Assembly (NCBI GenBank): GCA_003202005.1 | Contig: QJJF01000012.1 | Span: 1 to 64,000, forward strand | Reading direction: 5' to 3' | Length of the DNA stretch: 64,000 nucleotides | Source of the DNA: Williamsia faeni | GTDB lineage: Bacteria; Actinomycetota; Actinomycetes; Mycobacteriales; Mycobacteriaceae | In this document: one piece after another, positions 12,540-57,202 of the stretch | Numbering within the stretch: the stretch's first letter is position 1 | Layout of the letters: each line of letters starts with the position of its first letter | The notes under the pieces: generated by a model | Database searches by the model: none | What the model saw: only the letters and a program-made list of their open reading frames with translations | What the model was told of the DNA's origin: nothing | Program-made: the position numbers and the translations under genes

Positions 12540-13356
12540 CTCCGGAGATACGCCCTGCTTTGTGGTCAATTCAATAAATTATTCCACGCGGAAATAGAAA
12601 ACAATCAATAAGACCGATGTGCCCGCACATCAGTTGGTAGTCGGATAACTCTCGAGAATCGTCCGCAATTGTTTTGATTATCGTCCCGGTCAGCTCCACC
12701 CTCGATCGATGCGACGTGACGCGTGGACGCCAGATCTGGCGCTCACGCGTTTCCTCCGAGCCGAACCGCCGCTTCCGCCGGTATCCAACCCGTTCGAGAC
12801 CGACGCAACTGCGGTCCGACCCCCCGCCGCCTGCAGAGCACTTCCCTGGCTCTACCTGGGCTTAAAGCCGAAACACCGGTCGCCACCGGACTCCGTTTCC
12901 CGAGCTCGCCGGGCTGGTTTCTCGACGTGCAGCCATCACGACACCCAACTCACTCACCCACCAACTTACACGCATAAGTAACTCGCGTGGGACCTTTCGC
13001 CAGATGCGCCCATCCGTCGTCACATCGACGCCCGAAGGCCCTCCGCACAGCCCGAAATACGCTCTGGCTAACACCGAATGTGCGTGATAATGTGACTTCC
13101 GCTACAAAGGATTGCCGTTTTCTTCGAGCCCGGAATACGGAAAACGCATTCTTTATGTAGCCCGAGCACTCCGCTCGGGGTGCGGACCGTTTCGAATTCC
13201 GTCGCAACAGCCGGCGACGGAATCGTCACGCACCCGGAGTCGCTCACGAGGTTGCCCACTTCCCGGCCGCGCCAGCGCGAGCCTGCTGCACCCGACACCG
13301 CCACCGCCACCGGCGTCACGTGAACTCAGCCAACCAGTCGAACAGATGGAGAAGTA
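12540..13356 (+). other. Long intergenic leader region, no gene seen
   Basis: An 817-base gap. The first ~150 bases are clearly AT-richer than the neighbours (AATTCAATAAATTATTCC). It carries a short inverted repeat GATGTGC/GCACATC (12616-12631), the shared operator at 12964, and then two potential hairpins ahead of the catabolic operon: CGTTTTC (13116-13122) with GAAAACG (13140-13146), and CCCGAGC (13161-13167) with GCTCGGG (13173-13179). No open frame here looks like a protein. I read it as promoter plus a long structured 5' leader for the gene at 13357. Confidence 0.6.
12964..12988 (+). promoter_or_regulatory. Shared operator, copy 1
   Basis: ACTTACACGCATAAGT (12964-12979) followed by AACTCGCGT. 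The core is an inverted repeat (CTTAC-N4-ATAAG) of the size used by TetR- or GntR-like repressors. Copies stand at 34307 and 56791. This one lies 393 bases upstream of the five-gene amidohydrolase/M24/CoA-transferase operon. The regulator is not identified. Confidence 0.65.
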
Positions 13357-14526
13357 ATGTCGCTTCACACCACCAGCGCATCGTTGTATCCACCGGAAGG
13401 ACTAGCTCCCCCGAAGGACCGTCGCGGACACGCCGTCGGCGACCTCGGGCTCCCCACCGGCACCCAGGTGTTCTCCGCGGACAATCACATCTCACTCGCA
13501 GACGACATCTTCTTCGAACGGTTCCCTGAGGAACTCCGCGAGAAGGCGCCCCGAGTGTGGTACGAGGAGGGCGCTTTCCAGTTGGGACGCAAGGGAAAAT
13601 CATTTCTCCCCGGCGACTTCAGTCACGTCCTGATGCAGTACGACCCATTGGTCGGCTCCGGCAGCGCCAATATTGAAGCCCGGCTCGACGAACTGGCCGC
13701 GGACGGCGTCTCCAAAGAACTTGCCTTCCCGAATGCCCTTCTGGCACTTCTGTATTACCCCGACCGTGATGTCCGGGAACGCGCGTTCCGGATCTACAAC
13801 GAATACATCGCCGACCTCCAGGAGCGCTCCGGCGGCCGGTTCTACGGTGTCGGGCTGATCAACTGGTGGGATGCCGCGGGTACCCGTCGCACGCTGGACG
13901 AGCTGAAGTCGTTGGGTCTCAAGACGTTCCTGATGCCGCTGTCGGCAGGCAAGGATCTCGAGGGCACTCCCATCGACTACGGCAGCACGTCGATGATCCC
14001 GGTATGGGATGCCATCGAGGAGTCCGGCGTCCCGTTGGCACACCACATCGGCGAAGCACCGCTCTCGGCTCCCTGCGAGGTCAATAGCGTCGCGGTCGGC
14101 ATGATGCACAACGTCGCGCCGTTCCGGGAGATGTTCGGCAAGTACATCTTCAGCGGCATCATCGATCGCCATCCCGGCCTCAAGATCGGCTGGTTCGAAG
14201 GCGGCATCAACTGGGTACCGTCTGCCATCCAGGACGCCGAACACCTACTGGCGTCGTTCCGTCATATGCTGAATCGTCCTGTCGAACACGATGTCCGGCA
14301 CTACTGGGACAACCACATGAGTGCCTCGTTCATCGTCGACCCGCTGGGCCTGCAGATGATCGAGCAGATCGGAATCGACCACGTCATGTGGTCGTCCGAC
14401 TACCCGCACAACGAGAGCAGCTTCGGATACTCCGAGAAGTCGATCGCCGCCGTGGTGGAAGCGCTCGGACCTGAGGACGCGGTCAAGGCCGTCAGTACCA
14501 ACGTGTCGAAGTTCCTGGGCATCTAA
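13357..14526 (+). CDS. Amidohydrolase family protein (ACMSD-like)
   Basis: A 389-residue TIM-barrel amidohydrolase of the ACMSD/decarboxylase clan. Visible elements: S-A-D-N-H at the end of strand 1 (the first Asp of the usual D-x-D-N-H is Ser), H-H-I-G-E in mid-protein, and S-S-D-Y-P-H near the C-terminus with the metal-binding Asp intact. Relatives decarboxylate or hydrolyse C-C bonds of aromatic acids and ring-cleavage products. It is the first gene of a five-gene operon, with the ribosome site GGAGAA before the ATG and the shared operator far upstream. The substrate is unknown. Confidence 0.8.
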   Translation: MSLHTTSASLYPPEGLAPPKDRRGHAVGDLGLPTGTQVFSADNHISLADDIFFERFPEELREKAPRVWYEEGAFQLGRKGKSFLPGDFSHVLMQYDPLVGSGSANIEARLDELAADGVSKELAFPNALLALLYYPDRDVRERAFRIYNEYIADLQERSGGRFYGVGLINWWDAAGTRRTLDELKSLGLKTFLMPLSAGKDLEGTPIDYGSTSMIPVWDAIEESGVPLAHHIGEAPLSAPCEVNSVAVGMMHNVAPFREMFGKYIFSGIIDRHPGLKIGWFEGGINWVPSAIQDAEHLLASFRHMLNRPVEHDVRHYWDNHMSASFIVDPLGLQMIEQIGIDHVMWSSDYPHNESSFGYSEKSIAAVVEALGPEDAVKAVSTNVSKFLGI

Positions 14527-14546
14527 AAAGAGAGCGACAGCAAACC

Positions 14547-15785
14547 TTGACATCATCTGTCTTGACCAGCAACAAAACGACTTTGAGGGTCCCAGACAAA
14601 CCCGACCTGGCCCGGATGCGTCGCGAGACCGGTGCCCGGATCCGGGCGGAGATGACCGAGCGCGGGGTCGACGCGCTGATCCTTCTCGGCAACAACGCGG
14701 TCGCCTACGCCACCGGCGTGAGCTGGCCGTTGGGTGACGCCGGGTTGTCACACGTCGAACGGCCGGTCGCGGTCATCCTGCCGGACGACGAATGGCCCTA
14801 CCTGTTCTTACCCATCCGCGATGGTGCACCGGCAGATTCGGTCTTACCCGACGATCATGTGCTCCCGCCTGTCTACCTCGAGTTCGACGAGGGTGTCGAG
14901 ACCTTCGCCCGCATCCTGGAAGATCTGGTACCCGCTGACGCGACGTACGCCGTCGACGAGAGCACCGGGGCGATGCTGCGAGCGGCAAAGCGTCTGTTCC
15001 CGTCTGGTCCACCGCGCGACGCCGCACTCATCATCGGTGCGGCCAAACTCATCAAGACGGTCGATGAGTTGTCGTGCATCAGAAATGCCTGTCGCATCAC
15101 GGAAGAGGCAATGGCCGAGGTGCAGGCCGCACTCTCACCCGGGATGCGGCAGATCGACCTGTCCGCGGGTTTTGTCCGGCGAGCCTTCGAGCGGGGCGCG
15201 ACAGCCAACATGCTCGACGCCATCTGGCAGGTGATGCCGTCGAGCAAAGACACCGGGGTGTGGACCACCCACGGCGATCTCGCACTCCCGCTGCTGACCA
15301 CCGAGCGTGAACTCGCAAAGGGCGACGTCCTCTGGGTCGACGTCAGCATCACGTACTCGGGCTACTGCTCTGATTTCGGACGCACCTGGATCGTCGGGCA
15401 AGATCCGACAGTGCGCCAGCAGGCCCAGTTCAGGCAGTGGAAGGACCTGATCACCGCGGTGTTCGAGACACTCCGGCCCGGCGTCACGCTCGAAGATCTC
15501 GCCAATGCCGCCATCGCGGCGAACGGTGGAACCAAACCCTGGCTTCCGCACTTTTACCTCGGGCACAGCATCGGTACATCCGCAGCCGAAATGCCCATGA
15601 TCGGAACCGATCTGGGTCCCACCTACGACAAGAACTTCATCCTCAAACCCGGGATGGTGCTTGTACTCGAGCCGGTTGTCTGGGAAGACGGCACCGGCGG
15701 CTACCGCAGCGAGGAGATCGTGGTCATCACCGAAGAGGGCTTCGCGCCACTCACCGACTACCCCTACACCCCTTATGGCGACTGA
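14547..15785 (+). CDS. M24 (creatinase/Xaa-Pro peptidase) protein, intact metal site
   Basis: A 412-residue pita-bread protein. The N-terminal creatinase-like domain spans about 1-170 and the M24 domain about 175-400. All five expected metal ligands are seen: Asp265 (VDVSI), Asp276 (CSDFGRT), His340 (LGHSIG), Glu375 (LEPVVW) and Glu389 (RSEEIV). It starts with TTG 20 bases after the amidohydrolase and overlaps the next gene by 11 bases. M24 members cleave Xaa-Pro or C-N bonds, but some (for example DMSP lyase DddP) do other chemistry. In this catabolic operon a non-peptidase role is likely; that is inference. Confidence 0.8.
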   Translation: MTSSVLTSNKTTLRVPDKPDLARMRRETGARIRAEMTERGVDALILLGNNAVAYATGVSWPLGDAGLSHVERPVAVILPDDEWPYLFLPIRDGAPADSVLPDDHVLPPVYLEFDEGVETFARILEDLVPADATYAVDESTGAMLRAAKRLFPSGPPRDAALIIGAAKLIKTVDELSCIRNACRITEEAMAEVQAALSPGMRQIDLSAGFVRRAFERGATANMLDAIWQVMPSSKDTGVWTTHGDLALPLLTTERELAKGDVLWVDVSITYSGYCSDFGRTWIVGQDPTVRQQAQFRQWKDLITAVFETLRPGVTLEDLANAAIAANGGTKPWLPHFYLGHSIGTSAAEMPMIGTDLGPTYDKNFILKPGMVLVLEPVVWEDGTGGYRSEEIVVITEEGFAPLTDYPYTPYGD

Positions 15786-16896
15786 AATCCTGGCCGATGA
15801 TCGCGCTCTTCGCACCGGACGGCGAGAGCGCGTACTGGCCCAGATGGAGGCGCATGACCTCGACATACTCGTCCTGGGTCGACAGGCCAATGTCCGATAC
15901 GTCACCGGCGCAACGCAACTGTGGGTAGCCGGTACCCGGCCCTTCGCACCGAACTGTGTCCTGTCCCGGGAGACCGGTGAGATCCATCTGCTCAGTACCT
16001 GGGATGAGGGCATTCCCGACGACATCCCGCACGATCACCTCTACGGAATCGCCTGGAACCCGATGAACATCATCGCGGTGCTCAAGGAGATCGACGGCGC
16101 TTCAACGGCCCGCAGAGTCGGAATCGACGCTCTCTCACCGGGTTTTGCCGAACTCCTGCCCCATGCGTTCCCCAACGCCGAGCTGATCGATGCGGAGGTG
16201 GCACTGCGGACCGCACGGCGGATCAAGACGGCTGACGAGATCACTTCCATCCGAGAGGCATTGGAAATCGCCGAGGTCGGTTTGGCGGCGGCGGTGGCCG
16301 AACTCCGACCGGGGGTCAGTGATCAGCGACTGACAGGTGTCCTCCTGGAGGCGATGGCCGCCGGCGGTGTCAGCACCCCGGCGACCCAGGACGGCGCCTG
16401 GGTCACCTCACGGGACCACCACGGGCGTCGCGCGACCGGAAGCGGTGACGTCGCCGCCGGCGACCTCGTCGCCTTTGCCGCCGGGGTCCTGGACAGGGGC
16501 TATACCGGTGAGGTCGGACGCACCTGGCCGGTCGGTGACGTCACCGACGACACCCGGGCCCTGTATCGCCGCTCAGAAGCCCTGCGTGAAGGCCTATTTG
16601 CCGCTTGTCGTCCCGGAGCCCCGGCGGGTGCTCTCCTGTCTGCATATGAGGCGGCCGGCGAGCCGCTGCCCGCCACACCTGTCGCGCATGGATTGGGCCT
16701 GGGCTTCGACCCACCCGTCGTGTCACCGCACCTGCCCGACACCAATGCATCGGAAATGCTCGAGCCGGGCATGGTCCTGGCCGTCACGAGCTACGTCTGG
16801 ACGCAAGGTATCGGCGCGGTCTTCGGTCGCGATGCCGTCCTGATCACCGATCACGGGCCCGAAGTTCTCACCGGCGCTCCCTGGTGGACCGGGTAG
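15775..16896 (+). CDS. M24-like protein with degenerate metal site
   Basis: A 373-residue paralogue of the preceding gene, with the same two-domain layout and G-R-T-W and H-G-L-G landmarks. By eye alignment four of the five metal ligands are gone: the two Asp become Ala235 and Glu246, the Glu of L-E-P becomes Thr338, and the last Glu becomes Arg352; only His305 is kept. It starts at an ATG overlapping the upstream gene by 11 bases. Such a copy cannot be an ordinary di-metal enzyme and may be the structural or regulatory half of a heterodimer with the intact neighbour. The pairing is inference. Confidence 0.75.
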   Translation: MATEILADDRALRTGRRERVLAQMEAHDLDILVLGRQANVRYVTGATQLWVAGTRPFAPNCVLSRETGEIHLLSTWDEGIPDDIPHDHLYGIAWNPMNIIAVLKEIDGASTARRVGIDALSPGFAELLPHAFPNAELIDAEVALRTARRIKTADEITSIREALEIAEVGLAAAVAELRPGVSDQRLTGVLLEAMAAGGVSTPATQDGAWVTSRDHHGRRATGSGDVAAGDLVAFAAGVLDRGYTGEVGRTWPVGDVTDDTRALYRRSEALREGLFAACRPGAPAGALLSAYEAAGEPLPATPVAHGLGLGFDPPVVSPHLPDTNASEMLEPGMVLAVTSYVWTQGIGAVFGRDAVLITDHGPEVLTGAPWWTG

Positions 16897-16962
16897 ATGG
16901 CCGGGGACACGGTCGAGCCGAACACAGTCGAGCCGAAGATCGAGGGAGTCAGCACAGCATGA
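16897..16962 (+). CDS. Possible 21-residue coupling ORF
   Basis: An ATG follows the M24-like stop codon directly (TAGATG), and the frame runs 21 codons to a TGA that overlaps the start of the crotonase gene (ATGA). The peptide contains a tandem T-V-E-P-N-T-V-E-P, made by an 11-base direct repeat GTCGAGCCGAA (from 16912). It may only serve to carry ribosomes to the next start. No homology is recognised. Confidence 0.25.
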   Translation: MAGDTVEPNTVEPKIEGVSTA

Positions 16963-17921
16963 CGGATTCACTTCCCAAACCCGAAGAGATCATTCTGTTC
17001 GAGAAGGACCGAAAGACCAAGATCGCGACGATCACCTTCAACCGGCCCGACCAGCTCAACGCCCCGACCGCGGCTGCCCGCCTACGCTACGGCGATCTGA
17101 TCCACCGCTGCAGCATCGACGACGACGTCAAGGTGCTGGTGGTGCGCGGTGTCGGTGACGACTTCGGTTCCGGTGCAGATCTTCCCGAGTTCATGGCCAA
17201 TCAGAACGCCGAGTCTCCCGAGGCCCGGCTCCGCGAGTTCAAGCTCGAGGAAGACGACGTCACGGCGCCACCCCGGGGGTCGTTTCGGTTCGGTGCGTCC
17301 GTCAGCTCGTGGTACGCCAATCCGCAGGCCGGGTGCCGAAGTCTGCAGGAGTTCAAGAAGATCAGCATCGTCGAGACCAAAGGCTATTGCTACGGCTGGC
17401 ATTTCTATCAGGCCGCGGATGCCGACCTGGTGATCTCGGCCGACGACACCCTCTTCGGGCATCCGTCATTCCGCTATCACGGCTGGGGTCCCCGGATGTG
17501 GACGTGGGCTCAGGCCATGGGAATGCGGAAGTTTCAGGAGATGGTCTTCACCGGACGTGCCTTCACCGCCGCCGAGATGGACGCCTGCGGCTTCATCAAC
17601 AGTGTTGTGACCCGCGCGGACCTCGAGGCGGAGGTCGAGAAGTATGCGACCTCCTGCGCCCGAACCCGCCCCACCGACACCGTTTTCATGCAGAAGACGT
17701 TCTTCGAAATCATGAAGCAGCAGCAGGGTGAGTACATGGGCAGCCTGATGTCGGCGTTCTTCGAGTCGATGGGCAGCAACATCGCGGCCGACGGCAACGA
17801 GGTGATGCTCGAGGACGAGGACACATTCGGGCGCGGCCTCAACAACACCGTGAAGGGCAACGACGACCAGTATCCACCGGAGTTCAGGCTGAGCAAGTCC
17901 GGTCGCAAGAAGAAGAAATAG
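16959..17921 (+). CDS. Crotonase-fold protein lacking both catalytic Glu
   Basis: A 320-residue enoyl-CoA hydratase/isomerase-superfamily protein, longer than the usual 260. The N-terminal F-N-R-P-D-Q-L-N-A and D-F-G-S-G-A-D-L-P (oxyanion and CoA site) are present. The two Glu used for hydration are not: the first is replaced at Tyr150 (GYCYGWHFY) and the second at Ser170 (FGHPSFRYHG instead of the usual P-E). It therefore probably does other crotonase chemistry such as C-C cleavage, decarboxylation or dehalogenation. GAGGGAG lies 11 bases before the ATG at 16959, and the CoA-transferase follows 5 bases after the stop. Confidence 0.8.
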   Translation: MTDSLPKPEEIILFEKDRKTKIATITFNRPDQLNAPTAAARLRYGDLIHRCSIDDDVKVLVVRGVGDDFGSGADLPEFMANQNAESPEARLREFKLEEDDVTAPPRGSFRFGASVSSWYANPQAGCRSLQEFKKISIVETKGYCYGWHFYQAADADLVISADDTLFGHPSFRYHGWGPRMWTWAQAMGMRKFQEMVFTGRAFTAAEMDACGFINSVVTRADLEAEVEKYATSCARTRPTDTVFMQKTFFEIMKQQQGEYMGSLMSAFFESMGSNIAADGNEVMLEDEDTFGRGLNNTVKGNDDQYPPEFRLSKSGRKKKK

Positions 17922-17926
17922 TCCCG

Positions 17927-20350
17927 ATGCCGACCGCGAATGCCGGACACCCGCTCGACGGGTATGTCGTTGTTGATCTGTCGACGGGTATCGCCGGGGC
18001 GTACTGCACCAAGTTGCTCGCCGATGGCGGGGCCCGCATCATCAAAGTCGAACCACCCGAGGGTGATCCGCTGCGCCGGTGGTCGGCGTCGGGTGCGCAC
18101 ATCGCAGCCGATACCGATGGCGCGCTGTTCAGCTACCTGGCCTCCTCGAAACACAGCGTGACGGTCGATCCGGACAACCCCGATGATCTCCAACTCCTGG
18201 AGAAGCTACTGACCGACGCGGATGCGGTGGTGTGGTCACGAGATTCGCGCATCACCGAGCGGCCGTCGTTGACCGCCGACGAGATCCATCGCAGGTATCC
18301 GCATCTGACCGTCACCGCGATCACGCCGTTCGGGCTCACCGGGCCGTGGAGCGATCGGCCCGCCACCGAGTTCACGCTGCAGGCATGGTCGGGTGGCATC
18401 GTCGGGCTCGGACGCGGATCACCCGATCGGGCGCCCGTCCACGTAGGTGGCCAGGTGGGTGAATGGCTCACCGGCGCGTACGCCAGCGCCGGCACGCTCA
18501 CGTCCAAAATAGGAACCAGCGGCAGCGGGATCGGGGATCTCATCGACGTGTCGATGCTGGAAACCGAGATCCTCTGTCTGACCTACTATTCCGTCAGCTT
18601 CTTCGACGCCCTGAAGCGCCCGTTCCGGACCACCCGTGCCGCAAGTGTTCCCGGAGTCGCCGCGGCCGCGGACGGTCTGGTGGCGCTGGGTTGCGGCACC
18701 ATGCAGCAGTGGTTCGACCTATGCGTCATGGTCGGTCACCCGGAGTGGATCGACGAGGAGTCGACGCTCTCCATCACCGAACGGGCGAATCAGCACGCAC
18801 CGGACATCTACGCGTGGCTCTCCGAACAGGATGTCGCCGGAATCCGCGACTTCGCCGGCGCCCTGCGTATCCCCAATGCCCCGGTCATCCACGGCGCGAA
18901 CGCCACCGAGCAGGACCACTTCTGCGAACGCGGGAGCTTCACCAAGAATCCGCGGGACGGATTCGACCAGCCGGCGTCACCTTTCCGGATGCAGCCGGCC
19001 GTGCTTCGCCCACCGGAATCGTCGCCCCGGCTCGGCGAACACACCGACCACTACCGGACAGGGCCGGCCCGCATTCGTCCCCGAGTCGAGAAACCCACCA
19101 CCGGCGGCAAGCTTCCCTTCGCAGGATTGCGGGTGCTCGACATGACCGCCTACTGGGCCGGTCCGTCGTGCACACATTTTCTGGCGATGCTCGGTGCCGA
19201 GGTGATCCATCTGGAGTCGACTCGCCGGCCCGACGGGACCCGGCTCATCGCGGGTGTGCCTGTCACAGAGGATCTGTGGTGGGAACGCTCCCCGATCTTC
19301 TCGGGCCTGAACACCAACAAGAAGAGCCTGACCCTCGACTTCCAGACCGACCGCGGGCAGCAACTGCTCCGTCAACTCGTGGGGACCGCAGACATCATCG
19401 TCGAGAACTACACGCCGCGGGTGCTCGATCAGATCGGAATCGACTTTGCCGGTGTCCATGCCCTGCGCCCCGACGCCATCATGGTGCGGATGCCTGGCTT
19501 CGGACTCGACGGACCGTGGCGGGAGAATCCGGCATTTGCGTATGTCATCGAGGATGCGTCCGGATTGACCTGGCTGACCGGGTATCCCGATCAAAATCCA
19601 CTCGAGCCGTATTCGCTGGGCGATCCGAATGCGGGGGTCCATGCGCTCAACGCGCTGCTGCTGGCGCTGGAGCACCGCACCCGGACCGGAGAAGGTGTCG
19701 CGGTGGAGGTGGCCATGGTTGACGCGGCGCTGGGCATCGCCGCCGAGCAGGTCACCGAATACTCGGCGTATGGAAACACCTTGCAGCGCGACGGAAACCG
19801 GGGACCCACTGCCGCACCGCAAAACCTGTATCTGTCAGCAGACGTCGATGAGTTCGGGCGAAACGACTGCTGGATCGCGGTGGCCGTGGCAACCGACTCT
19901 CAGTGGGCCGGACTGCACAAGGCGCTCGGCGGACCCGAGTGGGCGTTGGATCCCGCGCTCGACGATGCCGCCGGCCGTCGCCTCCACCACGACCTCATCG
20001 ACACCGAACTCGCCGCATTCTTCCTGACGATGACCAGCGACTCGGCCGTCGAATTACTCTGCGACGCCGGGGTACCCGCGGCCAAGGTCATGCAACCTCA
20101 CCGGACCACGGAGATCCCGCAGCTCACCTCGCGGCGATTCTACGAACAGGTGGACCATCCGGTGAACGGCCCCGCGGCGCACAGCACCACACCAATTCGG
20201 TTCACCGACACCATCGATCACTTCCACCGGGCACCCGCGCCGCTGCTGGGAGAACACAACCAACAGATCCTGCGGGAGCTCGGGCTCACCGATGACGAGA
20301 TCGATGCGTTGCAGGCCGACGGCATCATCGGCACGTCGCCCGACCGATAA
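17927..20350 (+). CDS. Double-domain family III CoA-transferase (CaiB/BaiF)
   Basis: An 807-residue fusion of two family III CoA-transferase domains (about 1-385 and 392-800); the usual chain is about 400 residues. Domain 2 keeps the acyl-carrying Asp at 566 (SLGDPNAG). At the matching place in domain 1 the residue is Glu179 (QVGEWLTG). The enzyme would move CoA between acyl-CoA and a free acid, with domain 2 catalytic and domain 1 perhaps structural, as if an interlocked dimer were made from one chain. It is the last gene of the operon and activates a carboxylate without ATP. The substrate is unknown. Confidence 0.85.
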   Translation: MPTANAGHPLDGYVVVDLSTGIAGAYCTKLLADGGARIIKVEPPEGDPLRRWSASGAHIAADTDGALFSYLASSKHSVTVDPDNPDDLQLLEKLLTDADAVVWSRDSRITERPSLTADEIHRRYPHLTVTAITPFGLTGPWSDRPATEFTLQAWSGGIVGLGRGSPDRAPVHVGGQVGEWLTGAYASAGTLTSKIGTSGSGIGDLIDVSMLETEILCLTYYSVSFFDALKRPFRTTRAASVPGVAAAADGLVALGCGTMQQWFDLCVMVGHPEWIDEESTLSITERANQHAPDIYAWLSEQDVAGIRDFAGALRIPNAPVIHGANATEQDHFCERGSFTKNPRDGFDQPASPFRMQPAVLRPPESSPRLGEHTDHYRTGPARIRPRVEKPTTGGKLPFAGLRVLDMTAYWAGPSCTHFLAMLGAEVIHLESTRRPDGTRLIAGVPVTEDLWWERSPIFSGLNTNKKSLTLDFQTDRGQQLLRQLVGTADIIVENYTPRVLDQIGIDFAGVHALRPDAIMVRMPGFGLDGPWRENPAFAYVIEDASGLTWLTGYPDQNPLEPYSLGDPNAGVHALNALLLALEHRTRTGEGVAVEVAMVDAALGIAAEQVTEYSAYGNTLQRDGNRGPTAAPQNLYLSADVDEFGRNDCWIAVAVATDSQWAGLHKALGGPEWALDPALDDAAGRRLHHDLIDTELAAFFLTMTSDSAVELLCDAGVPAAKVMQPHRTTEIPQLTSRRFYEQVDHPVNGPAAHSTTPIRFTDTIDHFHRAPAPLLGEHNQQILRELGLTDDEIDALQADGIIGTSPDR

Positions 20351-21692: not shown

Positions 21693-21753
21693 GGGTCACT
21701 CCTTGAGAGTTGGCGGAAGATCGAGTGCGGTATGCAGGCACGCGGGGTTGCGC

Positions 21754-24318: not shown

Positions 24319-24324
24319 GATGGG

Positions 24325-26240: not shown

Positions 26241-26265
26241 GACCCGAATACCTGCGCCGTGACGG

Positions 26266-27570: not shown

Positions 27571-27572
27571 GG

Positions 27573-32039: not shown

Positions 32040-32042
32040 GCG

Positions 32043-32906: not shown

Positions 32907-32923
32907 TGGGTATCTCCCGGTCG

Positions 32924-35379: not shown

Positions 35380-35530
35380 TGCCACCTCCGGCCTCTCTCA
35401 TTCGATCGCCACCGCGGCCCGCAGAGCGCGATGTCGCAGGCAGGGTGCCTCTCTGTGCGAGATTATCAACACCGCCGCCACCACGCCGGGTGGAACTCCA
35501 CCCAAACCGGGCACAACGGACACCACTGGA

Positions 35531-44947: not shown

Positions 44948-44948
44948 T

Positions 44949-47632: not shown

Positions 47633-47635
47633 GTT

Positions 47636-49021: not shown

Positions 49022-50139
49022 CCTTCACCCCCGGAGATCGGCGCACTCAGTGGATCACGGACGTAGCGGCCATATCCCGGATCTCCCACCGCAGCCTGGA
49101 CCACCGCGTTCGGATCTCCCAGCGGGGTACCCAAGAGAAGTTCGCGCTGCATCCGCTCGACGGTGAGGTCGACTGTGGCATGGAGATTGATGTAGTCGCC
49201 CCGGACAGCGCGGTCGATGGTCTTCTGACCATATGGATACACCGTTGCGTAGGCGATGGCCTTGTCCAGTTGTGGGCCGACGTCAGCCAGTGATCGCAGG
49301 GTGGGTGCCAGATTCTCCAGGTCGGTCACCAGATCGTCCTGCACTGCGGTGACGACGCCGCTGGTGGTGTCGCTGAACACCCGGAGCTTCTCGAGCGCGG
49401 TACTGATCTGCGGCCGCTGCGCCACCAGCACGTCCAACGCCGGCGGGATCTTCTGCAGGGCTTCGGTGAGGATGTCCCGTTGCGTGGCAAACGTTTCGGC
49501 CAGGCGGTTGGCGTTGTTGATGGTCGCCACGATGTTCTCACGCTGTTGATCCAGAGCACCGACAAATGTGTCGAGCCGGGTGATCAGGTCCCGAATCGCA
49601 TCCTCCCGGCCGCCGAAAGCCGTATTGAGGGACGAGATGATGGTGTCGATCTGCCCGAGACCACCGCCGTTGATGATCGTGGACACCGATGCCAGGGTTT
49701 GTTCGGTGGTCGGGTACGTGGCCGTGTCGTCGAGCGGGATCGTGGCACCGGAGACGAGGCTGCCGGTCGGCGGTACACCCAGCGGTGGATTCAGTTCCAG
49801 ATGGTTGGAGCCCAGCAGGCTCGTCTGACCGATGTGCGCTTGCACGTTCCCCGGAACCACCACACCTTTCTCGACCCACACCTCCACATTCGCGTGCCAT
49901 CCGGCGACGGTCATGTCGCCGATACTCCCGACGACCACGTCGTCGATCATGACCGGCGAATTCGATACCAACGTACTGACATCGGCCATCTGGACGTGGA
50001 AGAGCTGGGAGTCCGGACCACGCCCGGCGGCACCGGGCAACGGCAATGAATTGACGCCTTGCCAGCTACAGCCGGCCACCGTCAACACGACGCAGGCGAC
50101 GAGTGTGAGCAGGCGCGCATCGATGTGTCCCCGGCTCAC
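49018..50139 (-). CDS. mceE: MceE, MCE-family lipoprotein
   Basis: A 373-residue MCE protein with a lipoprotein signal peptide: hydrophobic core L-L-T-L-V-A-C-V-V-L-T-V-A-G followed by Cys24. This is the usual lipidated member (LprN-like) of mce operons. The MCE domain (V-S-N-S-P-V-M-I-D-D-V-V-V-G-S-I) and a helical domain follow. It overlaps both neighbours by 4 bases. Confidence 0.9.
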   Translation of the reverse strand: MSRGHIDARLLTLVACVVLTVAGCSWQGVNSLPLPGAAGRGPDSQLFHVQMADVSTLVSNSPVMIDDVVVGSIGDMTVAGWHANVEVWVEKGVVVPGNVQAHIGQTSLLGSNHLELNPPLGVPPTGSLVSGATIPLDDTATYPTTEQTLASVSTIINGGGLGQIDTIISSLNTAFGGREDAIRDLITRLDTFVGALDQQRENIVATINNANRLAETFATQRDILTEALQKIPPALDVLVAQRPQISTALEKLRVFSDTTSGVVTAVQDDLVTDLENLAPTLRSLADVGPQLDKAIAYATVYPYGQKTIDRAVRGDYINLHATVDLTVERMQRELLLGTPLGDPNAVVQAAVGDPGYGRYVRDPLSAPISGGEG

Positions 50140-51380
50140 GACGGCTGCCGTTCGATGGGCAGGAGCAGCGAATCAAGGGGATTCGTCGCTGCCGCCGGCT
50201 TCTCGGGCGTCGCCTTCGCCGGGACGAGGTCGGGTTCGGTGTAGATGATGTTGTCGGGATCAGCTGTCGGACCGAGAACCGGATTGACCGGGAACGGCAG
50301 GTAGTTGAACGCCAGCAGTGGCAGTACAGGTCCCAGATACTCTCGACACTTCTTGGCGCCTTCCTCCGACGTCAGGTTCTCGACAGCCGCGACGCCGGAG
50401 CAGATGAACTGGATCGGATTCGAGAAGTTGTTCAACGTGAAAACTCCTGCCTCCGTGCCGGTGTCAGGGTTGTAGATGTTGTAGAAGTTGGCCATGCTGG
50501 TCGGGAAGACATGCAGCAACTGTTCGATGTCGGCCCGGTGGTCAACCAGGTTCTGGGTCACATTCACCAGTCGCTGCACCTGTTCCGTTGCCTTGGTGCT
50601 GTTCGATGCCACGAATCGCTGGACCTCCACCACCGCGACGGACAGATCGGTCAGCGCCGCATCGAGATCGGATCGACTCTCGTCGAGCACACTCGTCAAC
50701 GTCGCGAGCCTGCCCTCGAACTGGACGATCTGTTCATCACTGCTGCTGAGCGTGGTGACGAAGGTTTGCAGGTTGTTGATGATGTCGACGATGTCGCCGC
50801 TGCCATCGGCAAGGATCCGTCCGACACCGGACAGCTCATTGACGGTCGCCCTGAGTTTGTCGCCGTTACCGTCCATCGCATCGGCTGTGCTGTCGATGAA
50901 GCGGCCGAGCGTGCTCTCCGAGAGTTCGCCGCTCGGTCCCAGATCTGTTGCCAACCGGGTCAATTGCGTCTTGATCTCATCCCACTCGATCGGCACCCCG
51001 GTCCGTTCGAGTGGGATGACACCGCCGTCGGGCATGACCGGACCTTCGGTTCGGTAGGCCGGGGTCAGCGCGACAACTCTGTCGGCGACCAGATTCTGGG
51101 CCACGATGATCGCCTGCGCGTCCGCCGGGATCTTCACCCCTCGGTCGACTTTCATGTCGAGGCGCACCGATGTCCCCTGCGGGTGGATCCCGGCGACGGA
51201 GCCGACCTTCACCCCGGCGACCTGCACCTCGTCGCCCTTGTAGATACCGGTTGCGGTGGTGAACACAGCACTGATCGCTCTGGGGCCGAACATCTTCTGA
51301 TAGGCGAACACCGATCCCGCGAGGAGCGTTGACAACAGCACCACTGCCATGACGGCTGCGGCGATCCGGGTACGTGTCAT
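50136..51380 (-). CDS. mceD: MceD, MCE-family protein
   Basis: A 414-residue MCE protein with an N-terminal hydrophobic anchor (about 6-27), the MCE domain (Y-K-G-D-E-V-Q-V-A-G-V-K-V-G-S-V), a long helical region with regular hydrophobic heptads, and a Pro/Ala-rich tail. Operon order and overlaps identify it as the fourth MCE subunit. It forms part of the lipid-transport tube with the other Mce proteins. Confidence 0.9.
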   Translation of the reverse strand: MTRTRIAAAVMAVVLLSTLLAGSVFAYQKMFGPRAISAVFTTATGIYKGDEVQVAGVKVGSVAGIHPQGTSVRLDMKVDRGVKIPADAQAIIVAQNLVADRVVALTPAYRTEGPVMPDGGVIPLERTGVPIEWDEIKTQLTRLATDLGPSGELSESTLGRFIDSTADAMDGNGDKLRATVNELSGVGRILADGSGDIVDIINNLQTFVTTLSSSDEQIVQFEGRLATLTSVLDESRSDLDAALTDLSVAVVEVQRFVASNSTKATEQVQRLVNVTQNLVDHRADIEQLLHVFPTSMANFYNIYNPDTGTEAGVFTLNNFSNPIQFICSGVAAVENLTSEEGAKKCREYLGPVLPLLAFNYLPFPVNPVLGPTADPDNIIYTEPDLVPAKATPEKPAAATNPLDSLLLPIERQPS

Positions 51381-52435
51381 CGGCCCGGTCCCGTCGATGC
51401 CCCGACCGGGATTTGTCCCCCTGGGATCGGGAACGGTACACCCGGTTCGATGCCGAATGCTTTGTTGATGAACGGCTGGATCATGTGTCCGTCGATGAGA
51501 TTGGCGACGAAAGCGTTGTAGAAGGGTCCGCTGGACACTGCCTCACCTTGGGTGAGCGCCACTTTCGCCAGGCCCGGCAGGGCCTGCCCGATGTTGTCGC
51601 GGTTCTTCTCGAGTAGCGCTGCAACGGAATTCAATCGGTCCAGGGTGGGGGCCAATTGCGCCTCGTTGTCGGCGACAAGACCCGACAACTGCTGGGAAAC
51701 CGCGGAGGTGTTCGCCAGCAGATCCACGATCTCCTGGCGCCGGTCCGCCAGAACTTCCAGCAACGAATTGGCGTTGAGGATGAGCGCGTTCAATTCGTCA
51801 CTGCGCTCGGACAGTATCGATGTGACCTCACTGCTGCTGCTCAGCAGGTCACGCAGCGATTCGTTCCGGCTGTTGATCGAGCGCGACAGCTCGCTCAAGC
51901 CATCGAATGTCGGACCCAGTTGGGGCGCAACCTGATCGATGGTCGACGACAACGTGTCGAGCGACTGGTTCAGGGCATCGGTGTCAATCGACGTGACATT
52001 GGTGGTCAGGTCTCCCAACGCATCGTTGAGTGAATACGGCGACGATGTCCGTGAGCGCGGGATGACATCTGAAGGATGCAGGACTCCGCTGCCGGCACTG
52101 TCCAGGGTGAGCATCCGCCGGCCCAGCAGTGATCCGGTCTTGATCTGCGCGGCGGTTTCGGTGCCGAGGCGGACACCGTCGTCGACCCAGAATTCCACCC
52201 GGACATCGCCCTCGTCCAGCGAAACCTTGGACACCGTACCGACTTTCACGCCCGACAAGATCACGTCGGCTCCTGACCGAAGCCCACCTGCCTCTTCGAA
52301 CAAGGCCGAATACGGCAGAGAGGTGAACCAGGTGATGTACTTCTGCCCCTGCAGGCCCACAGCCACCAGGAGCAATATCAGGACGACCCCGATGAAACCA
52401 TGTCTGGCGAGGCGACCACCGCGATACTTCAGCAT
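51377..52435 (-). CDS. mceC: MceC, MCE-family protein
   Basis: A 352-residue MCE protein. The start at 52435 is one base after the mceB stop and gives M-L-K-Y-R-G-G-R-L-A-R-H-G-F followed by an anchor helix (about 15-31), a normal MceC beginning. The MCE domain has L-R-S-G-A-D-V-I-L-S-G-V-K-V-G-T-V. A helical region follows. It overlaps mceD by 4 bases. Confidence 0.9.
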   Translation of the reverse strand: MLKYRGGRLARHGFIGVVLILLLVAVGLQGQKYITWFTSLPYSALFEEAGGLRSGADVILSGVKVGTVSKVSLDEGDVRVEFWVDDGVRLGTETAAQIKTGSLLGRRMLTLDSAGSGVLHPSDVIPRSRTSSPYSLNDALGDLTTNVTSIDTDALNQSLDTLSSTIDQVAPQLGPTFDGLSELSRSINSRNESLRDLLSSSSEVTSILSERSDELNALILNANSLLEVLADRRQEIVDLLANTSAVSQQLSGLVADNEAQLAPTLDRLNSVAALLEKNRDNIGQALPGLAKVALTQGEAVSSGPFYNAFVANLIDGHMIQPFINKAFGIEPGVPFPIPGGQIPVGASTGPGR

Positions 52436-52436
52436 G

Positions 52437-53462
52437 TCAGGGCGAGCACCTCCCGGTTGTCTGTTCGATCCACGGCAGCACCACAACCGCGCCTGTCGAA
52501 TCGGTTACGCGAACCGTGATCGCGCAGATGAAGTACTGGATGAAATTGCCGTAAGTACCTGTCCGCACGAGCTTTCGGAAGTTCTCGGGAGCCTTCTGCA
52601 GCGCAGTGTCGAGACGAGCCTTGTCGTCATCGATCAGCGGAGCCAAGCGGGCGAGTTCATCCACCGACTCGGCCAGCGGTGGGCGCGCCTGCGTGAGCAG
52701 GTCGGCCACCGCGGCGGTACCGGAATCGAGTGCCGTGATGGCGGAACCGATCGGATCGCGCTGTTGCGCAAGCTCCGCCACCAGTCGGTCGAGCCTGGAG
52801 ACGGTGGCAGAGAACTCGGGCCCGCTGCTCGCCAACGTGGCCATCACCGTGTTCAGGTTGTCGATCAGGTCCTCGATCACCACACCGTCGTCGGCAAGTG
52901 TCGAGACAAACGAGGAGGTCTTCGAGAACAGCGATCCCACCGTGGCCTCCTGGCCCTGCATGATCTGCAGCAACGACGACGTCAGACCGTTGACCTCCTG
53001 CGGACGCAGACCGTCGATCACCGGTTTGAGTCCACCGAGCAGAACATCGAGGTCCAGTGCGGGCGCGGTCTGTTCTTCCGGAATCTGCGCCCCCGGGGCC
53101 AGGATCCGGGTGGATCCCGCGCCGTCGGTGAGGTCGAGGTAGCGGTCTCCGACGAGGTTGAGGTACTTGACCGTGGCATCGGTGCCGGCGGTCAGATGAA
53201 CATTCCGGTCGGCGTTGAAGGTGACCATCACGTGGTGGTCATCTTGCAGAGATACCTCTTCGACCGTCCCCACCCGCACACCGGCAACCCGGACGGTGTC
53301 ACCTGGCCCGAGCTCCGAGACCTCTTCGAACCGTGCCGAATAGCTGTTGGTGGAACCGCTGCGGAAGTCGCCGAACACCACCACCAGAAAGGCCGACATG
53401 ACGATCATGACAATCGCAAAGATCCCGAACTTCACCGCCTGCGGGCTCCGGAGTACGGTCAT
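52437..53462 (-). CDS. mceB: MceB, MCE-family protein
   Basis: A 341-residue MCE protein with an anchor at about 13-30 (FAIVMIVMSAFLVVVF), the MCE domain (G-P-G-D-T-V-R-V-A-G-V-R-V-G-T-V-E-E-V; V-K-Y-L-N-L-V-G-D-R-Y-L), and a helical C-terminal half. It overlaps mceA by 4 bases. Length and position are standard for the second MCE subunit. Confidence 0.9.
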   Translation of the reverse strand: MTVLRSPQAVKFGIFAIVMIVMSAFLVVVFGDFRSGSTNSYSARFEEVSELGPGDTVRVAGVRVGTVEEVSLQDDHHVMVTFNADRNVHLTAGTDATVKYLNLVGDRYLDLTDGAGSTRILAPGAQIPEEQTAPALDLDVLLGGLKPVIDGLRPQEVNGLTSSLLQIMQGQEATVGSLFSKTSSFVSTLADDGVVIEDLIDNLNTVMATLASSGPEFSATVSRLDRLVAELAQQRDPIGSAITALDSGTAAVADLLTQARPPLAESVDELARLAPLIDDDKARLDTALQKAPENFRKLVRTGTYGNFIQYFICAITVRVTDSTGAVVVLPWIEQTTGRCSP

Positions 53463-54619
53463 CGAGCCCTGCCGTCCATGATCGGTCCGAACAGTGCCCG
53501 CTGCAGGCTGTCCACGTTGACCTCGAGTCCGCGCCGGTCACCCACAAAGGGATTCGCCCCGATATCGGCGACCACAAAGGGTGGCTTCTCCTGGTACCCC
53601 ACCGGCAGCACCTGACACTGCGGTCCACCCGACGCCGCGACTTTGGGCAGGTTGTTCGGGTAGGTGTACGGCTCGGTACCGAACAAGAAGTTCGCAGAGA
53701 GTCCGAGACCCGGTACATCGACGGGTTGTGAATCGGCGAGATAGGCCATGCCATCTAGCGAACAGGTGAGCGCCTCGTTGTATTCATTGGTCAGGGCCAA
53801 GGTCGGGACGAGGACTGCCAACGTCGAATCGAGCAGAGGCCCGTTGGCCCGAAGTACCCGGTCACCCACGTCCGCCAGCCCGATCACGCTGGTCAAGAAC
53901 GCATCCAGGTTCTGTTGCTCGTCGACGATCGACTGACTCAATCCGGTGGCATTGTCGACGGTGGTCACCAGCGCCGGAGCAGCGTCGGCGTATGTGTCGA
54001 GGACCTGCGGTGCCATCTCGAGGTCGTGTCGCAGCGCCGGAAGCCCGGGTTCGACGGCCGCCAGGAACGTGTCGAAGTCGACCAGCATCTGGCCGACCTG
54101 ATCGCCACGCCCGCTCAGCGCTGTGGAGATCGCACCCAGGGTCTCGTTCAGCTTGTCGGGCTCGATCTGGGCCAGCACCGAGGTCAGCTGTTCGAACACG
54201 GTGTTGAGTTCAACTGTGACACTCCTGGAATCGAGCACCTGCCCCGCGTGCATCCGTTCCGGCGACGGTGTCTGCGGCGGCAGCAACTCGACAAACTTTG
54301 CCCCGAACACTGTTGATGATGCGATCTCGACCGCCACGTTCTCCGGGATATCCTGCAGTGCAGACGGATTCATCGCGAGTTCGATCGACGCCTGACCATC
54401 GGGCATCGACTCGATCGAATCGACATGACCCACCGTGACACCCCGCATCTGCACCTTGGCGTCCGGATACATCACCAGGCCGGCACGTGGCGACTGGACC
54501 GTGACCCGGACCGTGTCGGTGAAGCCACCCCGGAACAGGGTCACGGCAACCACCAGTACGGCGATCACCAGCAATATCGATCCCACCCCGATCAGCGGGC
54601 GAAACACGTTCGACGACAT
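53459..54619 (-). CDS. mceA: MceA, MCE-family protein
   Basis: A 386-residue MCE protein, first of the six. Anchor helix at about 9-30, MCE domain with V-M-Y-P-D-A-K-V-Q-M-R-G-V-T-V-G and S-S-T-V-F-G-A-K-F-V-E-L-L-P-P, then the helical domain. The sequence looks closest to Mce4A-type subunits (sterol import) as I remember them, but I cannot prove the subgroup. It lies 10 bases after yrbEB. Confidence 0.9.
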   Translation of the reverse strand: MSSNVFRPLIGVGSILLVIAVLVVAVTLFRGGFTDTVRVTVQSPRAGLVMYPDAKVQMRGVTVGHVDSIESMPDGQASIELAMNPSALQDIPENVAVEIASSTVFGAKFVELLPPQTPSPERMHAGQVLDSRSVTVELNTVFEQLTSVLAQIEPDKLNETLGAISTALSGRGDQVGQMLVDFDTFLAAVEPGLPALRHDLEMAPQVLDTYADAAPALVTTVDNATGLSQSIVDEQQNLDAFLTSVIGLADVGDRVLRANGPLLDSTLAVLVPTLALTNEYNEALTCSLDGMAYLADSQPVDVPGLGLSANFLFGTEPYTYPNNLPKVAASGGPQCQVLPVGYQEKPPFVVADIGANPFVGDRRGLEVNVDSLQRALFGPIMDGRAR

Positions 54620-54629
54620 CTGGTTTCGC

Positions 54630-55475
54630 CTAACCCGACAGGTTGAAGTTGCCGTTGGCGCCGTAGACCGCCAGAGAGACCAGCAGTGTGACCGTGACGA
54701 CGGCGATCAGCGACATCCGCACAGCATTGCCGACCGCGACGCCGACGCCGGCCGGACCTCCACGGGCGAAGAAGCCGAAGTAGGTGTGGATCAGCAAGAT
54801 CATCAAGGCCATCAGGAATGCCTGCAAGAACGACCACAGTAGGTCGATCGGATTCAGAAAGGTCGAGAAGTAGTGCTGATAGAGCCCTGACGACTGGCCG
54901 AGGATCACCACGGTCGTGAACCAGCAGGCGACGAAGGACGCCGTCAATGCGATGGCGTACAGCGGTGCAAGCACGATCATGCCGGCAATGATGCGGGTTC
55001 CGACGACGTACTTCATCGGGTCGATGCCGAGGGATTCGAGGGCGTCGATCTCCTCGTTGATCCGCATCGCACCCAATTGTGCTGTGGCACCGGCACCGAA
55101 GGTGGCGGCGAGCCCGATTCCGACCACGACCGGGGCCGCGATCCGGACATTGATGAACGCCGACAGGAAACCGGTCAGTGCCTCGATACCGATGTCTCCG
55201 AGAGAGCTGTACCCCTGCACCGCCAGTGTGCTGCCGGTGGCAAGCGTCAGGAATCCGACAATCACGACGGTCCCACCGATGACCGCGAGGTTGCCGGTTC
55301 CCATGCTGGTCTCGGCGATCAACCGCAGCGTTTCCCGCTTGTACTGCCATGCCGCGCGAGGAGATCCGACCAGCGCTTTCGCGTAGAAGATCGTGTGATC
55401 GCCGATTGCGCCGAGCGTCTTCACCGGCCGGTTCAGTTCTTGGACCGTCCGGCCGTACATCGTGCTCGGTGTCAT
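54630..55475 (-). CDS. yrbEB: YrbEB permease subunit (MlaE family)
   Basis: A 281-residue integral membrane protein with the MlaE-family pattern: an amphipathic N-terminal part, about five to six membrane segments, and the cytoplasmic coupling loop M-R-I-N-E-E-I-D-A-L-E-S-L-G-I-D-P that should contact the MceG ATPase. No mceG is in the window, as usual for these operons. It lies 10 bases after yrbEA. Confidence 0.9.
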   Translation of the reverse strand: MTPSTMYGRTVQELNRPVKTLGAIGDHTIFYAKALVGSPRAAWQYKRETLRLIAETSMGTGNLAVIGGTVVIVGFLTLATGSTLAVQGYSSLGDIGIEALTGFLSAFINVRIAAPVVVGIGLAATFGAGATAQLGAMRINEEIDALESLGIDPMKYVVGTRIIAGMIVLAPLYAIALTASFVACWFTTVVILGQSSGLYQHYFSTFLNPIDLLWSFLQAFLMALMILLIHTYFGFFARGGPAGVGVAVGNAVRMSLIAVVTVTLLVSLAVYGANGNFNLSG

Positions 55476-55485
55476 GACGTCTCCC

Positions 55486-56295
55486 TCATCCGGCAGTCAA
55501 TTGCACGCCGACCGCGGTGACCACCACGTTGACCACGAACAGCGCCATGAATGCGTACACGACCGTCTCGTTGACCGCATTGCCCACCGACTTCGCGCCA
55601 CCGGACACCGTGAGCCCCCGGTAACACGCCACCAACCCTGCGATGAGGCCGAACAGAAGGGCCTTGATCGCAGAGATGACCACCTCATTGATTCCGGTGA
55701 GCAACGTTATGCCCGACGCGAAAGCACCTGGGTTGACGTTCTGGACGAATACGGAGAAGACATACCCGCCGACCACTCCGATGATGCACACCAGACTGTT
55801 GAGGAGTAGAGCCACCAGTCCGGAGGCCACCATTCGCGGAGTGACCAGACGCTGTACCGGATTGATCCCGAGGACCTCCATGGCGTCGATCTCTTCGCGA
55901 ATGGTCCGCGATCCCAGATCCGCACACATGGCTGTCGCCCCGGAACCCGCCACGATCAAGACGGTCACCATCGGGCCTACCTGCGTGATGGCTCCGAATG
56001 CCGCGCCGGCCCCACTCAGATCGGCGGCACCGAGTTCACGGAGAAGGATATTGAGGGTGAAGCTGACCAACACCGTGAACGGGATGGCGACCAAAATCGT
56101 CGGTACCAGCGAAACGCGAGCGACGAACCATGACTGCTCGAGCATCTCCTTGCCCTGAAAAGGTCTGCGGAACAAAAACTTCACCGCATCGACCGACATC
56201 ATGAACAATCCACCGACGGATTCGAATGGACCGGACAGGTCAGGGCCGCGCCAACCCCCGGGCCGGATGCCACTTCTGATGTACCACCCGGCCAT
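55486..56295 (-). CDS. yrbEA: YrbEA permease subunit (MlaE family)
   Basis: A 269-residue MlaE-family permease and first gene of the mce operon. Its coupling loop reads T-I-R-E-E-I-D-A-M-E-V-L-G-I-N-P, and the end A-V-N-E-T-V-V-Y-A-F matches mycobacterial YrbE-A proteins. The ATG at 56295 adds a ~19-residue leader before the conserved P-F-E-S-V-G-G-L-F; an internal start nearer 56200 cannot be excluded. The shared operator lies about 500 bases upstream. Confidence 0.87.
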   Translation of the reverse strand: MAGWYIRSGIRPGGWRGPDLSGPFESVGGLFMMSVDAVKFLFRRPFQGKEMLEQSWFVARVSLVPTILVAIPFTVLVSFTLNILLRELGAADLSGAGAAFGAITQVGPMVTVLIVAGSGATAMCADLGSRTIREEIDAMEVLGINPVQRLVTPRMVASGLVALLLNSLVCIIGVVGGYVFSVFVQNVNPGAFASGITLLTGINEVVISAIKALLFGLIAGLVACYRGLTVSGGAKSVGNAVNETVVYAFMALFVVNVVVTAVGVQLTAG

Positions 56296-57202
56296 CAGAA
56301 CGTCGAACCCTCACCGAAAGTCCATTCATGCCAACCACTTCCCCGCCCCATCGACACCGTTGGCAATTGCATCCGTTCACCTCACTGTGCAAGAGATCCA
56401 AAGTCGGCACCCATGTCGCCCAATGCTTGATGACATTGCCTACCAACTGATTTGGTATTTCTGCAGAACATTCCCAGATATCCGGGGTCCACAGAGCTCA
56501 GGATCAGACAACAACGGACCCCACCTGTCCAGCACCCCCCGAAGGTGCCGCCTGCCCCGAGGAGCAGGACATGCATATTCGAAGCGACCGGGCTGCGGGC
56601 CAAATCGAATGGTCACACACGTGCGAATGAACCAGTTCGCTGCACCACTAGTGTTGCAGCCCAGCCGATTTCACCTGGCGTCCAGCAACGCTCGCCAGAG
56701 GTATCAACCACTCCTCTCACGCCTCGAAGACACTCCTACAACCAAGTAGAGCGCGGGTATCGCACCCTCATTCACCTACCTGCGAGCTCAACTTACACGC
56801 ATAAGTAGATGATGTGAGCAAAATCGCAGAGTTTTTTCAAACAGGCCACAAATCGATCCGGCGGACCGTGCCGGCGGCCCCCCGCAAGTGTGGAGAATTC
56901 CGGTATCTTCTCGCCGATTACGCAGTGTCCCAACAAGAATGGGATCGATTACCGAAAACGTTCACCTGCCGACGGTTGTCCCATATATGCTCCGCACATC
57001 TGCAAGAGCCCCACTTCCGCACAAGGATGAACCCCTTGGGTCCACCTTTCTGTAGTCAGCGACGTCCATCCCGAGTACGGGAGTACCGACGATCGGCGAC
57101 CGAGAAAAGCGGCTCTTCAGTACGGGTCACCGTGACCTGGCCAAACCCTGACACCCGGTGTCCCAATCCGCACCCGGTGTCCGTCGGAGGAGGAAGAATC
57201 TG
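56296..57202. other. Divergent regulatory region, no gene seen
   Basis: A gap of 907 bases between the mce operon and the binding-protein gene. It is AT-richer than average and contains the third shared operator at 56791. A GTG-started frame at 56814-57206 has the composition of noncoding sequence. I looked for KstR-like (AAC-N2-GTT) palindromes and saw none. The region is best read as promoters plus long leaders for both flanking transcription units. Confidence 0.55.
56791..56806 (+). promoter_or_regulatory. Shared operator, copy 3
   Basis: ACTTACACGCATAAGT, identical over all 16 bases to the copy at 12964. It lies 412 bases before the start of the solute-binding protein gene and 495 bases from the mce operon start. 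Upstream GCGAGCT also precedes the copy at 34307. The bases after the core differ from the other two copies. Confidence 0.65.

What the first reader, a model, noticed from the sequence alone, without database searches (positions are those of the whole stretch)
12964..56806. One 16-bp repeat ties three distant loci into a putative uptake-and-catabolism regulon
ACTTACACGCATAAGT occurs exactly at 12964 and 56791, with a close variant GCTTACACGCGTAAGT at 34307. All three are in intergenic DNA ahead of catabolic or transport operons. The first two share a further flank TAAGTRACTCGCGT. Chance matches of this length in 64 kb are very unlikely. It suggests one repressor controlling the amidohydrolase/M24/CoA-transferase operon, the P450-Mhp operon and the Mce/binding-protein uptake locus. 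I do not recognise the motif as KstR, KstR2 or another well-known site.
Basis: partly seen in the sequence, partly recalled or inferred. Interest (0 to 1): 0.8.

Follow-up and report, generated by a model that had tools for sequence, protein, structure and literature searches.

The report
LacI-type operator shared by three promoters
A 16-letter mirror-image DNA signal sits ahead of three groups of degradation and uptake genes in this bacterium, and comparison with relatives indicates that it is the docking site of a LacI-type switch protein encoded beside the middle copy.

Summary
The repeat is real. ACTTACACGCATAAGT occurs at 12964 and 56791, GCTTACACGCGTAAGT at 34307, all intergenic; the 5.52-Mb genome has no other copy with up to 2 mismatches. 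It is an imperfect 16-bp palindrome with central CG, the usual LacI-family operator shape. The likely binder is the LacI protein at 34390-35385, not the TetR. In relatives a like palindrome lies within 250 bp of lacI in 24 of 33 distinct orthologs, including 10 of 10 that adjoin the same P450 gene. A matrix from relatives' sites ranks the three window sites first. The TetR has no close homolog in the 12 LacI-bearing relatives tested. Against over-reading: AH1 and mce promoters of relatives lack the site, and sites 1 and 3 lie 377 and 396-495 bp from start codons. Best reading: a lacI-P450 control unit that captured a conserved catabolic island in this strain. Binding, effector and substrate are untested.

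The parts
12964..12979 (+). Site 1: ACTTACACGCATAAGT operator, 377 bp before the AH1 start codon
   Evidence: (matrix score 18.6)
12977..12992 (+). Possible second overlapping operator of site 1 (AGTAACTCGCGTGGGA, 10/14), 13 bp on
   Evidence: P about 0.04, marginal
34307..34322 (+). Site 2: GCTTACACGCGTAAGT operator between lacI stop and P450b start (180 bp before the GTG at 34126)
   Evidence: (19.4)
34320..34335 (+). Second overlapping operator of site 2 (AGTGACTCGCGTCACG, 13/14), centres 13 bp apart
   Evidence: P about 0.00025
56791..56806 (+). Site 3: ACTTACACGCATAAGT operator between the divergent mce operon (495 bp) and a binding-protein gene (396 or 411 bp)
   Evidence: (18.6)
34390..35385 (-). 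LacI-family regulator, the proposed binder
   Evidence: (PF00356, PF13377)
32924..34126 (-). P450b, first gene of the site-2 operon (ORF listing start 34177; probable start GTG 34126)
20451..33008 (-). Rest of the presumed site-2 operon: MhpC-like hydrolase, MhpA, MhpB-type LigB, KstD-like FAD enzyme, luciferase-like monooxygenase, SDR, cyclase, FMN reductase, hydrolase, SDR, P450a
   Evidence: operon inferred from same strand and short gaps
13357..20350 (+). Presumed site-1 operon: amidohydrolase AH1, two M24/creatinase proteins, enoyl-CoA hydratase, two-domain CoA-transferase III
47636..56295 (-). Divergent Mce operon (two YrbE/MlaE permeases, then six Mce proteins)
   Evidence: both permeases, first and last Mce tested; the four between by tblastn to annotated MCE genes of L152
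57203..58588 (+). Periplasmic-binding-protein-like gene (PF13458); start uncertain
44949..45599 (+).

Best explanation
The repeat is the operator of the LacI-family protein encoded at 34390-35385. Supported by comparison: the operator goes with this LacI lineage and marks the promoter of the neighbouring P450 gene (P450b) in relatives. Inferred: without an inducer, LacI dimers sit on the three palindromes and hold down the P450b-mhp operon, the AH1-M24-CoA-transferase operon and the mce/binding-protein locus; a pathway compound binds the sensor domain and releases them together. At 34307 two overlapping operators 13 bp apart could hold two dimers. Inferred evolution: a lacI-P450b unit of the kind found in Mycolicibacterium was joined to a catabolic island that relatives have without this operator, and new operators arose ahead of its other promoters.
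For: Shape: 16-bp even palindrome with central CG; PMC4052901 (passages seen) reports even palindromes for 1251 of 1303 LacI factors, with a CG centre in 1173. Footprint: a search for CG-centred palindromes that did not use the window's letters found ACTTACCCGCGTAAGT, ACTTACTCGCGTAAGT, GTTTACGCGCGTAAGC, GGTTACGCGCGTAACC/T and GGTTATGCGCTTAACC beside lacI in 9 of 15 loci, among some unrelated GC-rich palindromes. Targeted count: 24 of 33 distinct orthologs within 250 bp (26 reached 13/16, but I dropped L036, which lacks the CG centre there, and L058, which lacks the TTA/TAA core). All 10 distinct orthologs next to P450b (72-76% identity) have it in the shared gap. Reverse test: a matrix of those 24 sites, window excluded, scores 34307, 56791 and 12964 at 19.4, 18.6, 18.6; next in the window 7.75; none of 60 shuffled 64-kb sequences reaches 18.59 (maximum 17.3). 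Co-occurrence: strict pattern in 10 of 12 relatives with the LacI against 9 of 288 genomes without it; the reversed-pattern control is in 33 of 301 genomes by my count, so the 9 are background. The helix is VS[PT]ATV[ST]YVLN in the orthologs. P450b (74-75%) lies in the same stretch as AH1, P450a or CoA-transferase orthologs in 5 of 9 cluster stretches seen (L151, L180, L181, L184, L185), so LacI's conserved partner belongs to the same gene set.
Against: No binding or expression data. Nine of 33 orthologs lack the site within 250 bp, and the 33 include close species, so they are not independent. No matrix hit of 10 or more in 14 fetched cluster stretches, nor in 11 AH1-ortholog loci (L155-L165) and 11 binding-protein loci (L167-L177). 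Gaps to start codons in the window (180, 377, 396-495 bp) are long; PMC4052901 places over 75% of LacI sites 30-140 bp upstream, and relatives' P450b sites are about 25-45 bp away (read by eye). No site ahead of lacI itself here, although 72% of LacI factors in that paper are autoregulated. No sigma-70-like promoter was found at any site (tool tuned to TTGACA/TATAAT). The matrix sites were picked by likeness to the window motif and the co-occurrence pattern came from these genomes, so both tests are partly circular; one search is not.
Confidence: 0.8

Rival explanations
1. The TetR protein at 44949-45599, beside the mce genes, is the binder.
For: It lies inside the cluster, and TetR proteins bind palindromes of about this length (general knowledge).
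Against: No homolog at E <= 1e-15 in the 12 LacI-bearing relatives (the tool warns that an empty answer needs a positive control, and the query does find itself in the own genome); none of 150 other family genomes has one at E <= 1e-25 (where at most 21 candidates per genome were scored). Of the three copies none is within 9 kb of tetR.
Confidence: 0.04
2. LacI controls only the P450b operon; sites 1 and 3 are bound without consequence or are relics.
For: Only site 2 has a conserved counterpart; sites 1 and 3 are far from start codons.
Against: Sites 1 and 3 are identical over 16 bp (19 with neighbours) in otherwise unlike DNA (by eye), and all good copies in the 5.5-Mb genome are in this gene cluster.
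Confidence: 0.12
3. LacI acts as an activator or road-block/looping factor instead of a simple promoter repressor.
For: Long gaps between operator and start codon; three operators about 21 and 22 kb apart.
Against: Relatives' operators sit about 25-45 bp before P450b starts, as for steric repressors.
Confidence: 0.1
4. Chance or a mobile repeat.
For: The palindrome is short; one isolated hit lies inside an ORF in G010, which has no LacI match.
Against: apart from the second operator the flanks of the three copies do not look duplicated (by eye).
Confidence: 0.02

Closest known systems
LacI-family local regulons of Ravcheev et al. 2014 (PMC4052901; passages seen)
   Same: One LacI gene, a few CG-centred even palindromes, targets clustered around the regulator gene.
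   Different: Nearly 90% of those are local regulators of sugar use; here P450, meta-cleavage and Mce uptake genes. No autoregulatory site here. The word start 'mycobacter' does not occur in that paper's main text.
KstR/KstR2 cholesterol regulons (recalled)
   Same: Control mce uptake plus ring-degradation genes as one catabolic regulon.
   Different: TetR-family factors with other operators; the window TetR reaches 22.4 bits against a cut-off of 280 on the KstR model.
CcpA/cre and PurR boxes (recalled)
   Same: CG-centred LacI-family palindromes; the relatives' half-site GGTTAAGC ends in TAAGC like cre.
   Different: Global regulators; different outer bases and recognition-helix residues.
Mycobacterium branderi plasmid NZ_AP022607 cluster
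   Same: P450b 75%, M24a 70%, M24b 67%, AH1 69%, P450a 68%.
   Different: No LacI match and no like palindrome in the 33-kb stretch; two MarR genes instead.

Membership tests
LacI-family transcription factor | N-terminal LacI helix-turn-helix plus periplasmic-binding-like sensor domain | tested here: met
   PF00356 60.3 bits (cut-off 27), PF13377 99 bits (cut-off 26.5)
LacI-family operator | Even palindrome of 16-22 nt with central CG | tested here: met
   16 bp with CG at the centre in all three, imperfect arms; defining numbers from PMC4052901
LacI-family operator | Site conserved beside orthologous regulator genes | tested here: met
   24 of 33 within 250 bp; 10 of 10 with P450b neighbour
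LacI-family operator | Bound by the LacI protein | not testable with these tools
   needs a gel shift or footprint
[quoted passage not shown]
   180, 377 and 396-495 bp
KstR regulon | KstR-type TetR regulator | tested here: not met
   NF033703 22.4 bits against cut-off 280
Named LacI equivalogs (RbsR, CcpA, PurR and others) | Score above the NCBIfam cut-off | tested here: not met
   best RbsR NF047341 101.6 bits against 382

The most novel reading that the evidence does not exclude
A lacI-P450 unit has taken over a conserved but, as far as my searches reach, undescribed Mce-linked ring-degradation island (P450s, KstD-like enzyme, MhpABC, two-domain CoA-transferase) by seeding operators ahead of its other promoters, using an overlapping double operator (13-bp step) that recurs beside distant members of this LacI lineage; relatives run the same island without that operator.
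Probability: 0.5. Interest if true: 0.6.

Novelty: new member of a known kind. Interest (0 to 1): 0.47.

Why it matters
It gives a testable regulator, operator and three-operon regulon for a conserved actinobacterial catabolic island whose substrate is unknown: deleting one gene should switch the island on, and the inducer should point to the substrate. It also offers a LacI-family case outside sugar use and a traceable example of a regulator spreading its sites over an existing pathway.

Tried and rejected
TetR as binder: rejected. Promoter and terminator scans: uninformative. Congeners for footprinting: none of the 8 other genomes of the genus has the pattern or an AH1 match at E <= 1e-60, and their best MhpA matches are 32-36% identical, so the island is accessory within the genus. 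Near-DNA search of 30000-48000 in plasmids: no match. AH1-like and CoA-transferase-like genes next to LacI in several mycobacteria looked like support at first, but at 24-26% and 36-39% identity they are not the orthologs (AH1 orthologs are 65-80% identical and lie elsewhere), so I give them no weight. The binding-protein gene after site 3 has three paralogs of 70-72% in the own genome without a good operator copy, so mce may be the likelier target of site 3. A fourth own-genome candidate, C8:68772 ATTTATCCGCATAACT (score 17.0), is within what shuffled sequence yields (maximum 17.3). A second operator is marginal at site 1 (P about 0.04) and not supported at site 3. Literature: searches of the held PMC library showed no paper on this LacI, operator or cluster; I saw listings only, and only the top 10 of 34 and 12 of 275. 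RegPrecise itself was not available. Only PMC4052901 was opened (passages).
Full report
The repeat exists as described. With up to 3 mismatches, ACTTACACGCATAAGT has 3 matches in the window (12964 and 56791 exact; 34307 with 2 changes) against 0.10 expected. In the whole own genome no other copy has 2 or fewer mismatches. All three lie between genes: site 1 between a PfkB gene and the AH1 operon, site 2 between lacI and P450b, site 3 between the divergent mce operon and a binding-protein gene. The extra flank is shared by 12964 and 34307, not by the two exact copies.

What it is. The sequence is an imperfect even palindrome, ACTTAYRC|GYRTAAGT, with central CG. The survey PMC4052901 (passages) gives this as the usual form of LacI-family operators. 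A LacI gene (34390-35385) ends 67 bp from site 2.

Test in relatives. I collected orthologs of the LacI: 12 other genomes of 300 sampled in the family have one at 48-62% identity, and 20 named loci at 48-63% (L042-L061) came from genome contigs. From L027-L040 and L042-L061, 33 distinct proteins were tested after removing one duplicate (L043 = L027); second copies in a genome were kept, and L041 (35% identical) was left out. Searching only for CG-centred palindromes, without the window's letters, gave the operator beside lacI in 9 of 15 loci. Counting matches to the window consensus within 250 bp, 24 of 33 have a site (23 on the 3' side, 1 on the 5' side, L030); two further threshold hits were dropped (L036: no CG centre; L058: no TTA/TAA core), although L036 has a good site about 500 bp away. 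Whenever lacI adjoins the orthologous P450b (10 distinct loci, 72-76% identity) the site is in the shared gap, 10 of 10. In four loci (L027/L043, L028, L045, L047) a second site precedes a gene that leads into lacI; it is a transporter in the two tested, L027 and L045. In another branch the site precedes an aldehyde dehydrogenase (shown for L034, L040, L061; others by ORF size only).

Reverse test. A matrix from those 24 sites, window left out, puts the three window sites first (19.4, 18.6, 18.6), the next at 7.75, and no shuffled window of 60 reaches 18.59 (maximum 17.3). The sites were chosen by likeness to the window motif, so this is partly circular. The strict pattern RSTTAHGCGCDTAASY is in 10 of 12 LacI-bearing relatives and 9 of 288 genomes without the LacI (Fisher P 4e-12, same caveat; the own genome is left out and does not fit this strict pattern). 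The two LacI-bearing misses, G299 and G316, have sites that the pattern does not cover. The reversed pattern is in 33 of 301 genomes by my count, so hits without LacI are background.

TetR. Its gene has no homolog at E <= 1e-15 in the 12 LacI-bearing genomes and none in 150 other family genomes at E <= 1e-25. The palindrome therefore persists without a close TetR relative.

The flank. Of 80 loci L042-L121 I kept the 39 with a primary site of at least 12/14 near lacI (consensus RSTKACNCGNGTMASY, written after seeing the paired sites, so post hoc). A second site of at least 10/14 lies exactly 13 bp away in 13 of these 39, against 0 to 2 of 78 positions at any other offset from 8 to 30. Nine of the 13 score 12 or more (L066, L068, L071, L077, L084, L090, L092, L101, L114); L091 and L102 appear to lie at the start of the coding sequence and may be spurious. 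Overlap of the palindrome ends raises the background at 13, so I ran a control for the window: for site 2 the second copy (AGTGACTCGCGTCACG, 13/14) has P about 0.00025; for site 1 (10/14) about 0.04; for site 3 (8/14) 0.35. The clear cases are distant homologs, 31-37% identical, in Streptomyces and one Actinoplanes-like genus. Of 14 distant loci that I chose for a closer look, 11 have the helix VSRATVSYVLN; three Paractinoplanes loci carry GGTTACACGTGTAAGT (matrix score 16.5) before lacI, the other 11 score 11.1 or less.

The regulated genes. Operon 2 holds P450b, an MhpC-like hydrolase, MhpA and MhpB-type enzymes (MhpA and LigB above NCBIfam equivalog cut-offs), a KstD-like dehydrogenase, a luciferase-like monooxygenase, an FMN reductase and P450a. 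Operon 1 holds an amidohydrolase, two M24 proteins, a hydratase and a two-domain CoA-transferase. Site 3 faces an uptake operon of two YrbE and six Mce proteins. I infer oxidation of a hydrophobic multi-ring or terpenoid-like substrate; this is inference, and my literature searches showed no paper on the cluster.

What does not fit. None of the 14 fetched cluster stretches of relatives has a matrix hit of 10 or more, nor do 11 AH1-ortholog loci and 11 binding-protein loci. For AH1 this includes genomes with the LacI (G318, G142, G213). The mce promoters seen are from G034 and G215, which have no LacI ortholog, and G365, which was not tested for it; their lack of the site is thus weak evidence. 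In the window the sites are far from start codons (180, 377, 396-495 bp). Thus LacI as binder is strongly supported; control of operon 2 is well supported; control of operons 1 and 3 is supported by identity and confinement only. A M. branderi plasmid stretch with orthologs of operon 1 and P450b but no LacI in it has no like palindrome, in line with the site following the regulator.

Verdict: a sound, ordinary kind of finding (a LacI local regulon) with an uncommon cargo and a plausible case of regulator capture; no binding shown.

Noticed in passing
window 13357-56295; L180, L181, L184-L191: A large catabolic island (AH1, M24a/b, ECH, CoA-transferase, P450a/b, MhpABC, KstD-like, luciferase-like, mce) is conserved in parts over many Mycobacterium and Nocardia-like genomes (AH1 at E <= 1e-60 in 62 of 400 other family genomes); substrate unknown.
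   Followed up: partly
L066, L068, L071, L077, L084, L090, L092, L101, L114: Distant LacI homologs in Streptomyces and an Actinoplanes-like genus have paired operators 13 bp apart, overlapping by 3 bp, upstream of lacI (some).
   Followed up: partly
L033 10509-11643; L027 7082-8230: Genes of the ecdysteroid-kinase-like/APH family lie beside this LacI lineage; in L033 one has an operator on both sides.
   Followed up: no
L043 8602, L028 11902, L045 8652, L047 41: Second operator ahead of a gene pair ending in lacI (first gene a transporter in the two tested), suggesting autoregulation in these relatives.
   Followed up: partly
L031, L032, L048, L055, L058: LacI copies without a convincing operator nearby; G336 and G278 each have a second LacI that keeps it (L040, L038).
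   Followed up: no
own genome C8:68772 (L134): Weak fourth operator-like site ATTTATCCGCATAACT, score 17.0, between ORFs by my caller; within chance range.
   Followed up: partly
L151 (NZ_AP022607): M. branderi plasmid carries the AH1/M24/P450 gene set without LacI or operator in the stretch, near two MarR genes and an MmpS/MMPL transporter pair.
   Followed up: no
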